This document shows, in pieces, positions 57,697 to 62,619 of a stretch of DNA of 64,000 nt. The stretch comes from Stackebrandtia nassauensis DSM 44728. Its GTDB lineage: Bacteria; Actinomycetota; Actinomycetes; Mycobacteriales; Micromonosporaceae. The notes below the pieces were generated by a model, which was not told where the DNA came from, made no database searches, and saw nothing but the letters and a program-made list of their open reading frames with translations. Position 1 is the first letter of the stretch. Every line of letters starts with the position of its first letter. The stretch is taken from NCBI RefSeq assembly GCF_000024545.1, contig NC_013947.1:3162001-3226000 (forward strand). The letters run 5' to 3'. The position numbers and the translations under genes were made by a program.

Positions 57697-58062
57697 GTGG
57701 CACGCGTTAAGCGGGCACTCAATGCCAAGAAGAAGCGCCGCGTCGTCCTGGATTCCGCGAAGGGATACCGGGGACAGCGCTCCCGGCTGTACCGCAAGGC
57801 AAAGGAGCAGCTGCTCCATTCCTACGAGTACTCCTACCGGGACCGCCGGGCCCGCAAGGGCGACTTCCGGCGACTGTGGATCACCCGCATCAACGCCGCG
57901 GCCCGCGCCAACGGCATCACGTACAACCGGTTCATTCAGGGACTGAAGGCTGCCGAGGTCGAGGTGGACCGCAAGGTCCTGGCCGACCTGGCCGTCACCG
58001 ACGAAGCCGCGTTCACCGCGCTCGTCGACGTGGCCCGCAAGGCTCTTCCGGCCACCGCCTGA
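57697..58062 (+). CDS. rplT: Ribosomal protein bL20
   Basis: The 121 aa protein has the typical [19 protein letters not shown] start and the [19 protein letters not shown] core. It is an early assembly protein of the 50S subunit. It starts with GTG; GAGGAGAAAGA lies upstream. Its stop overlaps the ATG of the methyltransferase gene (TGATG). Confidence 0.97.
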
Positions 58063-58880
58063 TGATCGAATCAGCACCCGGGTCGACCCCGCTGACGCGG
58101 ACGTCGTCCCGGGTTGTTGCTGCCCGCAAACTCTCGCGGCGTCGCACCCGCGACGAACGCCGTTCCTTCATGGCCGAGGGACCGCAGGCGGTCGCCGAGG
58201 CGGTGCGGGCCGGTGGCGTCACCGAGGTCTTCGCCACCGAGGCGGCGCTGAGCCGCCACACCGGGCTGCTGGCCGAGGCCGAGTCCTTCGGCGCCCGGGT
58301 GTTCGCCGTGGCCGACTCGGGCCTGGCGGCACTGACCGACACCGTGCACCCGCAGGGCATCGTGGCGGTGTGCGGCTACGTCGACACCACGCTGCCCGAA
58401 ACCGTGCGGTTGGCGGTCGTCCTGGACGGCATCGCCGATCCCGGCAACGCCGGGACCATCCTGCGCACCGCCGACGCGGCCGGAGCCCAGGCGGTGGTGT
58501 TCCCGCACGGCTCGGTCGACCCGTACAACGGCAAGTGCGTGCGGGCGTCGGTGGGCAGCCTGTTCCACCTGCCGGTGGTGCGCGGCGGCGACACCGACGA
58601 ACACCTGGACGCGTTGCGCGCCAAGGGCTTGCGCATCCTCGCCGCCGACGTGCGCGGCGAGACCGACCTGGACGCGGCCATCGATGACGGCCTGCTGCGC
58701 CAACCCACGGCCTGGCTGTTCGGCTCCGAGGCCCACGGCCTGTCCGACGCGCTCACCGAACGCGCCGACGTGCGGGTCCGGGTGCCGATCTACGGCGCGG
58801 CCGAGAGCCTAAACCTCGCGACGGCCGCCGCGGTGTGCCTGTATGCTTCCGCACGAGAACATCGCAAAGGAGAAACCTGA
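58062..58880 (+). CDS. SpoU/TrmH-family RNA 2'-O-methyltransferase
   Basis: The 272 aa protein has an N-terminal substrate-binding part (ARKLSRRRTRDERRSFMAEG) and a SPOUT domain with motif 1 LDGIADPGNAGTILRTADAAG, motif 2 WLFGSEAHGLS and motif 3 RVPIYGAAESLNLATAAAV, the trefoil-knot SAM site. It methylates a ribose of rRNA or tRNA; the position between rplT and pheS is conserved in actinobacteria and the protein is usually called a 23S rRNA methyltransferase. Its TGA overlaps the ATG of the small leader frame that follows. Confidence 0.92.
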   Translation: MIESAPGSTPLTRTSSRVVAARKLSRRRTRDERRSFMAEGPQAVAEAVRAGGVTEVFATEAALSRHTGLLAEAESFGARVFAVADSGLAALTDTVHPQGIVAVCGYVDTTLPETVRLAVVLDGIADPGNAGTILRTADAAGAQAVVFPHGSVDPYNGKCVRASVGSLFHLPVVRGGDTDEHLDALRAKGLRILAADVRGETDLDAAIDDGLLRQPTAWLFGSEAHGLSDALTERADVRVRVPIYGAAESLNLATAAAVCLYASAREHRKGET

Positions 58881-58939
58881 TGTCACGCATGTCTATGCGG
58901 ATGTTTATGCGGCCCGCCGGTGGCGGGCTGCGGCGGTAG
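58880..58939 (+). CDS. 19-residue leader peptide upstream of pheST
   Basis: A small frame from ATG 58880 to TAG 58937-58939 overlaps the SpoU methylase stop (TGATG) and has a strong ribosome binding site, AAAGGAG (58866-58872), with a 7-nt spacer. It encodes MSRMSMRMFMR followed by an 8-residue Gly/Arg-rich end; one Phe codon (TTT, an unusual codon in this GC-rich genome) sits among five Met codons after the start. The last codons are part of an RNA stem with two mutually exclusive partners. I propose a leader peptide that controls pheST through ribosome position; I do not know of a described homologue. Confidence 0.6.
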   Translation: MSRMSMRMFMRPAGGGLRR

Positions 58940-59033
58940 TTCTCTTTCCCTCATCGCAGCCGAGACCGGCGGGCTGACGGCACAGCCGTGTGTGTCCTCT
59001 TAGAACCTTACGCGGGGCGGTTTCGTGCCCCGC
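58912..59033 (+). promoter_or_regulatory. Candidate attenuator with alternative stems before pheS
   Basis: Segment 1 (58912-58920, GCCCGCCGG) can pair with segment 2 (58922-58928, GGCGGGC, 7 bp, loop GGT) or with segment 3 (58966-58974, CCGGCGGGC, 9 bp). Segment 3 shares GGCTG with a further hairpin to CAGCC (58983-58987). A final stem GCGGGGC/GCCCCGC (59012-59018 and 59027-59033) ends 13 nt before the pheS ATG. No T-tract follows the last stem, so control would be of translation or of Rho-dependent termination rather than of intrinsic termination. Confidence 0.5.
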
Positions 59034-59046
59034 CGACCGAAAGCGT

Positions 59047-60132
59047 ATGGCGATGACCTATCGAAGCGATCCCTACGACCCCAAGGAAGCCGCGTACCTG
59101 TCGCCGCAGGCGCTCGACGACGCGATAGCCACGGCCGAGAAGGCCTTCGCCGAGGCCGGAGACGCCGACACCCTCGCGTCCATCAAGCACCTGCACCTGG
59201 GTGACAAGGCCCCGATCTCGCTGGCGCGCCGCGAGATCGGCTCGCTGCCCCCGGCTGCCAAGGCCGACGCGGGCAAACGCGTCAACACCGCCCGCCAGGC
59301 CGTGACGGTCGCCTACGAAGCCCGCGCCGAGGTCCTGGCCGCCGAGGCCGCCCAGCGCGTCCTGCGCGAGGAGACCGTCGACGTCACCGTCCCGGTCGAC
59401 CGGCGCCCCCGCGGCGCCCGGCACCCGCTGACCCTGACGGCCGAACGCATCGCCGACTTCTTCACCGCGATGGGCTACCAGATCAGCGAGGGCCCCGAGA
59501 TCGAACCGGAGTGGTTCAGCTTCGACGCGCTGAACATCGGCCCCGACCACCCCGCGCGCTCCATGATGGACACGTTCTATCTGGACGCCGCCGGTCGCGG
59601 CGCCGCCTCCGGCCTCACCCTGCGTCCGCACACCTCCTCGGTGCAGATCCACACCATGCTCACCCAGGAGCCGCCGATCTACGCCGTCTCCCCGGGCCGG
59701 GTCTACCGCACCGACGAGGTCGACGCGACCCACAGCCCCGTCTTCCACCAGACCGAGGGCATCGTCATCGACAAGGGCATCACCATGGCCCACCTCAAGG
59801 GCACCCTCGACCACTGGGCCAAGGCCATGTTCGGCGTCCAGGCCCGCACCCGGCTGCGGCCGTCCTACTTCCCGTTCACCGAACCCAGCGCCGAGGTCGA
59901 CGTCTGGTTCGCCGCCCACCGCGACGGTCCCCGCTGGATCGAGTGGGGCGGTTGCGGCATGGTCAACCCGCGGGTGCTGCGCGCCTGCGGCATCGACCCG
60001 ACCATCTACAGTGGCTTCGCCTTCGGGATGGGCATCGACCGCGCCGTCATGCTGCGGCACGGGGTCACCGATATGAGAGACATGTTCGACGGAGATGTGC
60101 GCTTCCCGCTGGCGCTGGGAACGGAGGAGTAG
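59047..60132 (+). CDS. pheS: Phenylalanyl-tRNA synthetase alpha subunit
   Basis: The 361 aa protein has the N-terminal coiled-coil arm (ALDDAIATAEKAFAEAGDAD) and the class II catalytic core. Motif 2 is around PGRVYRTDEVDATHSPVFHQ, the substrate pocket is PSYFPFTEPSAEVDVWF, and motif 3 is YSGFAFGMGIDRAVMLRHGV. Together with PheT it attaches Phe to tRNA(Phe). The ATG at 59047 is preferred (a second ATG follows two codons later); the ribosome binding site is weak (GAAAG), and a stem precedes it. The separation from pheT is 3 nt. Confidence 0.97.
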   Translation: MAMTYRSDPYDPKEAAYLSPQALDDAIATAEKAFAEAGDADTLASIKHLHLGDKAPISLARREIGSLPPAAKADAGKRVNTARQAVTVAYEARAEVLAAEAAQRVLREETVDVTVPVDRRPRGARHPLTLTAERIADFFTAMGYQISEGPEIEPEWFSFDALNIGPDHPARSMMDTFYLDAAGRGAASGLTLRPHTSSVQIHTMLTQEPPIYAVSPGRVYRTDEVDATHSPVFHQTEGIVIDKGITMAHLKGTLDHWAKAMFGVQARTRLRPSYFPFTEPSAEVDVWFAAHRDGPRWIEWGGCGMVNPRVLRACGIDPTIYSGFAFGMGIDRAVMLRHGVTDMRDMFDGDVRFPLALGTEE

Positions 60133-60135
60133 CCG

Positions 60136-62619
60136 ATGCGAGTCCCACTGTCCTGGCTGCGCGAGTACGTCGCGCTGCCGCAAGACCTGCCGATCGCCGA
60201 CCTCGACGCCGCGTTCGTCCAGTGCGGCCTGGAAGTCGACACCGTGGAAGACCTGCGCGACAACGTGACCGGCCCGCTCGTGGTCGGCACCGTCGCGTCC
60301 TTCGAGGTGCTCACCGACTTCAAGAAACCCATCCGCTACTGCCAGGTCGACGTCGGTGAACCCGAACCGCGCGGCATCATCTGCGGTGCCAGCAACTTCG
60401 CCGAGGGCGACCGGGTCGTCGTCGCGCTGCCCGGCGCGGTACTGCCGGGCGGCTTCGCGATCAGCGCCCGCAAGACCTACGGCCACGTGTCCGACGGCAT
60501 GATCGCCTCGGCCCGCGAACTGGGCCTGGGCGAGGACCACTCAGGCATCATGGTGCTGCCCGACAGCGCCGAGGCCCCCAACGGCGCCGACGCGCGCCCG
60601 GTGATCGGCCTGGACGAGGTGATCTTCGAACTCGAACTCACCCCCGACATGAGCCACTGCTTCTCCATGCGCGGCATCGCCCGCGAGGTCGCCCACCGGC
60701 TCGGCGTCGGCTTCACCGACCCGGCCGGTCTGACCACCGAACCGGCGGCCACCGCCGACGGCCCGCACCCGCTGCGCGTCGACGACCCGCTGGGCTGCGA
60801 CCGCTTCGCCACCCGCGCCGTCCGCGGCCTCGACCCCGCCGCGGCCAGTCCGGAATGGCTGCGCCGCCGCCTCATCCACGCGGGGATGCGTCCCATCAGT
60901 CTGGCCGTGGACGTCACCAACTACCTGATGCTGGAACTCGGCCAGCCCATGCACGCCTGGGACCTGGCCACCCTCAAGGGAACCCTGGTGGTGCGCCGCG
61001 CCGCCGCCGGCGAGAAACTGACCACACTCGACGACGTCGAACGGTCCCTGGACGCCGAGGACCTCGTCATCTGCGACGACACCGGTCCACTGTCCCTGGC
61101 CGGAATCATGGGCGGCGAAACCAGCGAGATCTCGGACTCCACAACGGACGTCCTCATGGAGGCGGCCCACTGGGACCCGACCACCATGGCCCGCACCGGC
61201 CGCCGCCACCGGCTGTCCAGTGAGGCCGGAAAACGCTTCGAACGCGGCGTCGACCCCGCACTGTGCCGCGTCGCGGTCCAGCGCGCCATCGACCTGCTCG
61301 TCGAATACGGCGGCGGCACCGTCGACGCGTCGGTCGGCGACATCGACAACCGCCGCCCCACCGCGACGATCCGCCTCGCCGCCGACCTACCGTCCCGCAT
61401 CGCGGGCGTCAGCTACGACACCACCCGGGTCGGCGCGGCGCTGGACGCCTGCGGCTGCACCTGGACCGCCGAAGCCGACACCCTCACGGTGACGCCACCC
61501 AGCTGGCGGCCCGACATGACCGACCAGGCCGACGTCGTCGAAGAGGTCATCCGCCTCGACGGCTACGACAAGGTCCCCTCGGTCCTGCCCGCGGCCCCAC
61601 CCGGCCGCGGCCTCACCCCGACCCAACGCCGACGCCGCCACATCGGCCGCGCCCTCGCGTCAGCCGGGTACGTCGAAACCCTCACCTACCCGTTCGGCGA
61701 CCCGACGGTCTTCGACGCCCTCGGCCTCCCCGCCGACGACCCGCGCCGCCAGGTCCTCACCCTGGCCAACCCGATCGTCGACGCGGAACCGGCACTGCGC
61801 ACCACCCTCATCCCGGGCCTCCTCAAGGCCCTCAAGGTGAACGTGGACCGCGGCATCCGCGATGTCGGCCTCTTCGAGACCGGCCTGGTCTTCAACCCCC
61901 GCCCGGGCTGGGAAGACCAACCGCTCCCACAACTCCCGGTCGACCGCCGACCGACCGCCGCCGAACTGGCGGTGGCCGACGCGCTCCGCCCACACCAACC
62001 CCAACACCTCGCCACGGTCCGCTGCGGCCACATCGAGAGCGACGGCTGGTGGGGCCCAGGCCGCTTGGGAGACTGGAGCGACGCCATAGCGGCGGCCCGC
62101 ACCATCGCCTCGGCCTCCGGCGTCGAACTCGAAGTCCGCCAAGCCCAACACGCCCCCTGGCACCCGGGCCGCTGCGCCGAACTGCTCCACAACGACACCG
62201 TCGTGGGCCACGCGGGCGAACTCCACCCGAGCGTCTGCGACGCCCTGGAGGTACCCCGCCGCACCTGCGCGGTCGAGATCAACCTCGACGCCATCGGCTT
62301 CCCCGAGGTCCCACCAGGCCCATCGATCTCCCACTACCCGGTGGCCCTGATCGACGTCGCGGTGGTCGTCGACGCCACCACCCCGGCAGCCCAAGTGGCC
62401 AGCGCCCTCTCCGAAGGCGCGGGTGACCTCCTGGAGGACATCCGCCTGTTCGACGTCTTCTCCGGCGAACAACTCGGCGAGAACCGCAAATCGCTGGCCT
62501 ACAAACTCACCTTCCGCGCCCCGGACCGCACCCTCACCGCGGACGAGACGGTCGAGGCCCGCGACCGAGCAGTCGCCCTCGCCGCCGACCGCCACGGCGC
62601 GGTACTGCGCGGGGCGTGA
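60136..62619 (+). CDS. pheT: Phenylalanyl-tRNA synthetase beta subunit
   Basis: The 827 aa protein has the expected domain order. MRVPLSWLREYVALP (B1) is followed by the EMAP-like tRNA-binding domain (GTVASFEVLTDFKKPIRYCQ), the B3/B4 editing domain (RRRLIHAGMRPISLAVDVTN, then AHWDPTTMARTGRRHRLSSE), B5, the class II-like core (VETLTYPFGDPTVFDALGL) and the C-terminal anticodon-binding FDX-ACB domain (DIRLFDVFSGEQLGENRKSL). It forms the alpha2-beta2 enzyme with PheS and is followed by a strong terminator. Confidence 0.97.
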   Translation: MRVPLSWLREYVALPQDLPIADLDAAFVQCGLEVDTVEDLRDNVTGPLVVGTVASFEVLTDFKKPIRYCQVDVGEPEPRGIICGASNFAEGDRVVVALPGAVLPGGFAISARKTYGHVSDGMIASARELGLGEDHSGIMVLPDSAEAPNGADARPVIGLDEVIFELELTPDMSHCFSMRGIAREVAHRLGVGFTDPAGLTTEPAATADGPHPLRVDDPLGCDRFATRAVRGLDPAAASPEWLRRRLIHAGMRPISLAVDVTNYLMLELGQPMHAWDLATLKGTLVVRRAAAGEKLTTLDDVERSLDAEDLVICDDTGPLSLAGIMGGETSEISDSTTDVLMEAAHWDPTTMARTGRRHRLSSEAGKRFERGVDPALCRVAVQRAIDLLVEYGGGTVDASVGDIDNRRPTATIRLAADLPSRIAGVSYDTTRVGAALDACGCTWTAEADTLTVTPPSWRPDMTDQADVVEEVIRLDGYDKVPSVLPAAPPGRGLTPTQRRRRHIGRALASAGYVETLTYPFGDPTVFDALGLPADDPRRQVLTLANPIVDAEPALRTTLIPGLLKALKVNVDRGIRDVGLFETGLVFNPRPGWEDQPLPQLPVDRRPTAAELAVADALRPHQPQHLATVRCGHIESDGWWGPGRLGDWSDAIAAARTIASASGVELEVRQAQHAPWHPGRCAELLHNDTVVGHAGELHPSVCDALEVPRRTCAVEINLDAIGFPEVPPGPSISHYPVALIDVAVVVDATTPAAQVASALSEGAGDLLEDIRLFDVFSGEQLGENRKSLAYKLTFRAPDRTLTADETVEARDRAVALAADRHGAVLRGA

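What the first reader, a model, noticed from the sequence alone, without database searches (positions are those of the whole stretch)
58880..59046. Candidate new leader-peptide attenuator controlling pheST
Seen: a 19-residue frame with a strong ribosome binding site (AAAGGAG, 7-nt spacer) overlaps the upstream stop and ends inside RNA segment 1 (58912-58920). Segment 1 can pair with 58922-58928 or, exclusively, with 58966-58974; the latter competes with a further hairpin to 58983-58987. A last stem at 59012-59033 precedes the pheS start. The peptide is Met-rich with one Phe TTT codon. Known: pheST operons of gamma-proteobacteria use Phe-rich leader peptides. Inferred: stalling at Phe (or Met) codons selects the fold that lets pheS be expressed.
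Basis: partly seen in the sequence, partly recalled or inferred. Interest (0 to 1): 0.7.

Follow-up and report, generated by a model that had tools for sequence, protein, structure and literature searches.

The report
Conserved phenylalanine-codon leader upstream of pheST
Upstream of the genes for the phenylalanine tRNA-charging enzyme in many soil actinobacteria lies a tiny reading frame with one rare phenylalanine codon, placed so that a ribosome waiting there would cover one arm of a conserved RNA helix; it is very probably an undescribed sensor of phenylalanine supply.

Summary
The small frame and its exclusive pairings are real and conserved. The element lies upstream of pheS in 78 of 90 fetched family loci; a covariance model finds one copy in each of 180 of 200 family genomes, and weaker versions occur in four other families. 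The frame carries one fixed Phe codon, TTT in 81 of 81 distinct PheS-anchored rows, although PheS genes use TTT for 8 of 479 Phe codons. Five bases on starts segment A (GCCCGCCGG, inside the frame), which can pair with B (usually also in the frame) or with C (45 nt on). A:C plus triloop hairpin D is the unsupervised consensus fold, with compensatory changes in 8 of 15 pairs. A -10-like box usually precedes the frame; 17 of 52 copies look leaderless. Best reading: a ribosome waiting at UUU covers A and blocks the A:C down-structure, so pheST is expressed when Phe-tRNA is short. Stalling, sign and termination are inferred; U-tracts are mostly absent. Met codons and the 59012-59033 stem are not conserved; the competing hairpin is D. 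No Rfam match; a 2005 survey reported no such element for phenylalanine in Actinobacteria. New variant of a known kind.

The parts
58842..58847 (+). P1 -10-like hexamer TATGCT in the end of the SpoU-type methylase gene; probable promoter of the leader (inference)
   Evidence: Sequence; TANNNT at this codon in 58 of 73 leader-bearing loci against 0 of 10 leader-lacking loci; 5 and 2 further loci had no such gene end and were dropped
58866..58872 (+). Shine-Dalgarno AAAGGAG of the leader ORF
   Evidence: Sequence; similar sites before the start in genus relatives
58880..58939 (+). Leader ORF MSRMSMRMFMRPAGGGLRR* (19 aa)
   Evidence: conserved ORF with F-x-x-P-A in relatives
58904..58906 (+). Single fixed Phe codon TTT
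   Evidence: TTT in 81 of 81 distinct PheS-anchored rows against 8 of 479 Phe codons in 30 PheS genes
58912..58920 (+). Segment A, GCCCGCCGG, inside the ORF, after five bases from TTT
58922..58928 (+). Segment B, GGCGGGC, inside the ORF; can pair with A; 8 nt before the stop codon
58966..58974 (+). Segment C, CCGGCGGGC, exact complement of A
   Evidence: Covariation; minimum-energy fold
58977..58989 (+). Hairpin D, ACGGC-ACA-GCCGT (5-bp stem, triloop)
   Evidence: 4 of its 5 pairs show compensatory changes
59047..60132 (+). pheS (start at 59047; relatives suggest 59053)
60136..62619 (+). pheT frame (name from position and length, recalled; not searched)

Best explanation
It is a ribosome-mediated attenuator that senses charged tRNA-Phe for pheST. 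A promoter at the end of the upstream methylase gene makes a leader transcript. When Phe-tRNA is plentiful the ribosome passes the single UUU and ends at a stop codon usually 8 nt past B; there it covers B and leaves A (nearly) free, so A pairs with C next to hairpin D, and this structure (perhaps with Rho on the C-rich spacer) stops the leader transcript before pheS. When Phe-tRNA is short the ribosome waits with UUU in its A site and its front edge covers the first half of A, so A:C cannot form and transcription runs into pheST. Shown by comparison: the ORF, UUU, A, B, C, D, their conservation, the covariation of A:C and D, and the tie to pheS. Inferred: promoter activity, stalling, the ON/OFF sign and the termination step.
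For: 78 of 90 fetched PheS loci of the family carry it; one copy in each of 180 of 200 family genomes; one strong copy in the own genome. All 34 loci checked from the model scans hold pheS; 77 of 80 named pattern hits lie upstream of pheS. TTT in 81 of 81 distinct PheS-anchored rows. Unsupervised fold = A:C + D; 97.9% of 720 cells paired, 33 both-side changes against 7.4 in shuffles and 18 in the best slid version. Stop 8 nt after B in 35 of 52 copies, for both A-B loop sizes. Masking model: mean A:C probability above 0.5 in 0 of 52 when stalled at UUU (largely by construction) and in 30 of 52 with the ribosome at the stop. Residues before F vary, which fits a codon signal. Genus g44 (4 loci read) and f4 (L288, L289) keep A:C without D, so A:C is the core.
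Against: U-runs (TTT or longer) follow D in only 5 of 49 copies. In 22 of 52 copies A:C is not favoured with the ribosome at the stop; in six the stop lies so early that A is masked there, in 25 A is partly masked (mostly its last base). With no ribosome A:C is favoured in 40 of 52, so B seldom wins at equilibrium. A -10-like box near pheS in 81 of 90 loci could express pheS past the leader. Twelve of 90 family loci lack the element. One divergent copy (L275) has TTC. A:B shows no covariation beyond one cell.
Confidence: 0.66

Rival explanations
1. Opposite wiring: C with D and the bases after D is the terminator, A:C is the antiterminator, so a ribosome that reaches the stop codon turns pheST on and Phe shortage turns it off.
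For: D is followed by a U-run in a few copies (such as L059, L080, L009); GYYY within 8 nt after D, able to pair with GGGC of C, in 28 of 49 against 18.9 expected.
Against: C+D plus the following 8 nt is not more stable than with shuffled or swapped tails (-15.4 against -15.7 and -16.0 kcal/mol); g44 and f4 copies keep A:C but show no D; the sense is physiologically odd for a tRNA synthetase (general knowledge).
Confidence: 0.13
2. Rho-dependent attenuation: the C-rich spacer between stop and C is a Rho loading site, and leader translation with the A:B/A:C choice hides or shows it, still with Phe codon sensing.
For: Spacer composition, mean of 48 of 52 copies: C 0.46, G 0.18 against C 0.36, G 0.38 upstream; few U-runs; Rho is suggested for actinobacterial cys leaders in PMC1262725 (passage).
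Against: A C/U-rich spacer may simply be unstructured; nothing here tests Rho.
Confidence: 0.12
3. Translational or mRNA-stability control, or a conserved structure that only ends the upstream transcript ahead of a pheS-proximal promoter, with no Phe sensing.
For: -10-like box near pheS in 81 of 90 loci against 7 and 3 of 90 in two controls.
Against: It does not explain TTT in 81 of 81 distinct rows at a fixed distance from A, nor the tie to pheS.
Confidence: 0.06
4. Nascent-peptide arrest: the peptide, not the codon, stalls the ribosome.
For: F-x-x-P-A-G is widely conserved.
Against: P-A-G is encoded by segment A and is explained by pairing; residues before F vary in kind and number; the codon itself is fixed as TTT.
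Confidence: 0.03

Closest known systems
Leader-peptide attenuators of tRNA synthetase genes in Streptomyces (trpS trpL2, leuS, alaS, thrS: PMC8079986 passages; trpS and leuS also PMC1262725 passages)
   Same: Short, often leaderless ORF with codons of the cognate amino acid upstream of a tRNA synthetase gene; trpL2 has one Trp codon and no uridine-rich stretch.
   Different: No pheS member in the passages seen; here both alternative arms A and B usually lie inside the ORF and the single codon is the rare synonym TTT.
ilvB leader peptides of Actinobacteria (PMC1262725 passage)
   Same: Regulatory codons overlap the terminator hairpin, so a stalled ribosome could block it directly.
   Different: There runs of Ile/Val/Leu codons and poly-U terminators; here one codon and mostly no poly-U.
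E. coli pheST (pheM) and pheA leaders (recalled)
   Same: Same target genes (pheST) and same amino acid signal.
   Different: Runs of Phe codons and a classic antiterminator/terminator with U-tract (recalled); no Rfam family matches here.
Leaderless Cys-run attenuators of mycobacteria (Canestrari 2020, seen only in a reference list)
   Same: Leaderless leader ORF, amino-acid codon sensing, actinobacterial (from its title).
   Different: Cys runs, other genes.

Membership tests
Ribosome-mediated leader-peptide attenuator | Short translated ORF upstream with its own start signals | tested here: met
   SD and ATG in the window; leaderless signature in frame in 17 of 52 copies, 0 and 2 of 52 in the other two frames. 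Start signals only; translation not measured.
Ribosome-mediated leader-peptide attenuator | Codon(s) of the amino acid handled by the downstream gene | tested here: met
   TTT before pheS in 81 of 81 distinct PheS-anchored rows (the search required TTT or TTC); TTC in one divergent copy, L275.
Ribosome-mediated leader-peptide attenuator | Several regulatory codons in a row | tested here: not met
   One fixed Phe codon per leader; the residue before it is F in 1 of 50 rows. The model of PMC1183508 (abstract and passages) favours several.
Ribosome-mediated leader-peptide attenuator | Mutually exclusive RNA helices | tested here: met
   A:B and A:C share A; A:C covaries; A:B is nearly invariant, conserved but not proven by covariation.
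Ribosome-mediated leader-peptide attenuator | Intrinsic terminator with U-tract, or SD-sequestering hairpin | tested here: inconclusive
   Runs of TTT or more after D in 5 of 49; mean 3.8 T per 16 nt against 2.2 background. SD sequestering not examined.
Ribosome-mediated leader-peptide attenuator | Expression responds to shortage of the amino acid | not testable with these tools
   Needs an experiment.
Known Rfam leader families and T-boxes | Match to a curated covariance model | tested here: not met
   Window 58000-60000: three matches below gathering scores, none in the element; nine related loci: 0 matches.
Translation arrest peptide | Conserved residues N-terminal to the stall site | tested here: not met
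   Nine different residues directly before F in 50 rows; N-terminal parts differ in length and sequence.

The most novel reading that the evidence does not exclude
A single-codon, direct-masking attenuator: one rare synonymous codon (UUU), kept across a family and in relatives of its order, sets the pheST level because the waiting ribosome itself covers the 5' arm of the down-structure, with the stop codon spaced so that the finishing ribosome covers the competing arm; no separate antiterminator and mostly no U-tract.
Probability: 0.5. Interest if true: 0.72.

Novelty: new variant of a known kind. Interest (0 to 1): 0.62.

Why it matters
It would fill a gap: a 2005 comparative survey reported no conserved RNA structure upstream of phenylalanine operons in Actinobacteria (PMC1262725, passage). 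It also bears on how few regulatory codons an attenuator needs and why a rare synonym is kept: the model of PMC1183508 favours several codons (passages), yet here a single UUU is fixed. The element is compact, tied to pheS, and present in 180 of 200 sampled genomes of the window's family, so it is directly testable.

Tried and rejected
(2) Met sensing: the Met codons are not shared by relatives. (3) A known Rfam family. (4) More copies elsewhere: in the own genome the next matches are at E 0.0067 (same place, opposite strand) and 0.16 or worse; in the class scan 21 of 296 genomes matched, 3 of them in the window's family; the other 18 have a best E from 5.8e-4 to 0.0099 and none of their 18 loci holds pheS (L243 also read). 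(5) C:D extended by downstream bases as the terminator: no energetic support.

Limits and biases: the 130 of 130 TTT count includes loci from a pattern that demanded TTTA, so the unbiased count is 81 of 81, and even there the search required TTT or TTC before GCCC. In one search, 98 of 101 genomes had PheS; 90 were fetched. Alignment A1 holds 48 of the 52 dereplicated rows; L018, L034, L041, L073 were left out (no D, or long inserts), so its D counts lean towards copies with D. The 52 include two rows (L154, L193) from the biased pattern. In one search two rows (L020, L068) were anchored on a wrong TTC and were re-anchored. In one search one further row was cut at a contig start and dropped. 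The outermost A:C pair fails in 10 of 48 sequences. Ribosome footprint limits (-14, +15) are recalled values. Family f4: 3 of 11 fetched loci have the element (one of them, L292, only weakly) plus one doubtful (L283); at E <= 1e-4 the model finds only one f4 genome. Large scans used stricter filters that lose weak matches.

Full report
The observation. The frame does not end in segment 1; it runs through A and B. The window lies in a single-contig genome of 6,841,557 bases; from its size I take it for Stackebrandtia nassauensis, which is recall and not a tool result. The frame at 60136-62619 has the position and length of pheT (name recalled).

Conservation. PheS was searched in 101 genomes of the same family (98 with PheS) and 90 upstream regions were fetched and read. 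The element is present in 78: one search left 16 of the 90 without a regular-expression hit, and model R1 recovered four of these (L004, L032, L052, L084) at 68-80 bits. Twelve lack it. Model R1, built from 48 sequences, finds one match in each of 180 of 200 family genomes at E <= 1e-4 and one strong match in the own genome (E 1.8e-21, but the window's sequence is in the model). All 34 loci held (L308-L341) contain pheS.

Reach. In the order, model R2 matches 63 of 298 genomes at E <= 1e-4, in five families only (f1, f4, f5, f12, f13). Of the genomes drawn the element was read or matched in 5 of 5 of f13, 2 of 3 of f5 and 1 of 2 of f12. Family f4 was read in 11 loci: 3 have it (L292 weakly) and one (L283) is doubtful. 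In the class, 18 genomes outside the family had matches of E 5.8e-4 or worse; none of those 18 loci holds pheS, so I take them for chance.

The codon. At the fixed place before A the codon is TTT in 81 of 81 distinct PheS-anchored rows, and in 50 of 50 after removing rows 85% or more alike, with TTC allowed by the search. The PheS genes of 30 family loci use TTT for 8 of 479 Phe codons. The next base is A in 76 of 81; I cannot explain that. One divergent copy (L275) has TTC. Residues before F vary, and the P-A-G after it is written by segment A, so the codon rather than the peptide looks like the signal.

The structure. RNAalifold on A1 returned A:C (10 pairs) plus D (5 pairs) with no guidance; 8 of 15 pairs have changes on both sides. 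Of 720 cells 97.9% pair; 33 cells change on both sides against 7.4 in shuffles and 18 in the best slid version. Four A:C pairs never vary and the outermost fails in 10 of 48. Clear cases include L072, where A and C differ together, and L085, where the leader's stop codon sits at the end of A and C follows it. A:B is retained almost without variation, so its use is supported by conservation but not by covariation. The distance from A to C is 19-87 nt, 45 in the window. Genus g44 (L018, L026, L041, L058) and f4 copies (L288, L289) keep A:C but show no hairpin D.

Promoters. In leader-bearing loci the end of the upstream methylase gene carries TANNNT in 58 of 73 against 0 of 10 in leader-lacking loci; 5 and 2 loci without that gene end were dropped. 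In 17 of 52 copies a TANNNT stands 5-8 nt before an in-frame ATG or GTG; the other two frames give 0 and 2: these leaders probably begin at the first base of the transcript. A second -10-like box lies within 110 nt of pheS in 81 of 90 loci against 7 (reverse strand) and 3 (upstream coding) in controls; the window itself has no match to that pattern. So pheS may have a leader-independent promoter in most relatives, and the leader would add a regulated share. A sigma-70 consensus scan of the window region found none.

Mechanism. With UUU in the A site, a ribosome whose front edge lies at +15 (recalled) covers the first five bases of A, which is why the constant distance matters. The stop codon lies 8 nt after B in 35 of 52 copies, for the short and for the 3-nt-longer A-B loop; a ribosome there covers B. 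By the same footprint A is then free in 21 copies, partly covered in 25 (mostly its last base) and covered in 6. With these masks the mean A:C pairing probability exceeds 0.5 in 0 of 52 copies in the stalled state (expected from the mask itself), in 30 of 52 at the stop, and in 40 of 52 with no ribosome. For early-stop copies only the dwell time could discriminate. I take A:C (with D) as the down-structure because D is missing in some copies that keep A:C, because bases after D do not stabilise C+D beyond shuffles, and because Phe shortage should raise a Phe-tRNA synthetase. What stops transcription is unclear: U-runs follow D in 5 of 49 copies, the spacer is C-rich and G-poor, and predicted intrinsic terminators are fewest in Actinobacteria (PMC2965389, passage).

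Known work. PMC1262725 (passages) reported no conserved RNA structures upstream of phenylalanine operons in Actinobacteria, but attenuators at trpS and leuS, and ilvB leaders whose codons overlap terminators. PMC8079986 (passages) lists eight leader peptides in S. lividans, four of them before tRNA synthetase genes (leuS, trpS, alaS, thrS); no word beginning 'phenylalan' occurs in its main text. PMC13236596 has no word beginning 'pheT' or 'phenylalan' in its main text. PMC4833913 was seen in abstract and results section and names no pheS leader there. Six paper searches listed no report of this element; most subscription journals are not held. Rfam has no match.

Verdict. A real, conserved, pheS-specific element, most likely a Phe-codon attenuator: a known kind in a new variant with a single rare UUU, both competing arms usually inside the leader frame, and a stop codon placed to cover one of them.

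Noticed in passing
L269, L272, L300 (genus g76, same order): A different short leader before pheS, MER(G/T/S)VRSSTLFTA*, again with a single TTT near the stop, in 3 of 4 fetched g76 loci (L304 shows none). Perhaps an independent Phe leader design.
   Followed up: partly
window 59047-59058: pheS relatives mostly align from residue 2 or 3 and start ATG-ACC-TAC-like, so the true start may be 59053 rather than 59047.
   Followed up: no
L018, L026, L041, L058 (genus g44): Leader and A:C kept but hairpin D lost; C is followed closely by a TACACT box.
   Followed up: partly
L029, L033, L035, L038-L040, L045, L050, L054 (leader-lacking relatives): pheS lies near the methylase gene with a TAGACT-type box shortly before its start; the leader and the upstream -10 box are absent together.
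   Followed up: partly
base after TTT in leaders (window 58907): It is A in 76 of 81 distinct rows although it pairs with nothing in the model; unexplained.
   Followed up: no
window 59012-59033: Strong GC stem just before pheS, not seen in the genus relatives read; not part of the conserved element.
   Followed up: partly
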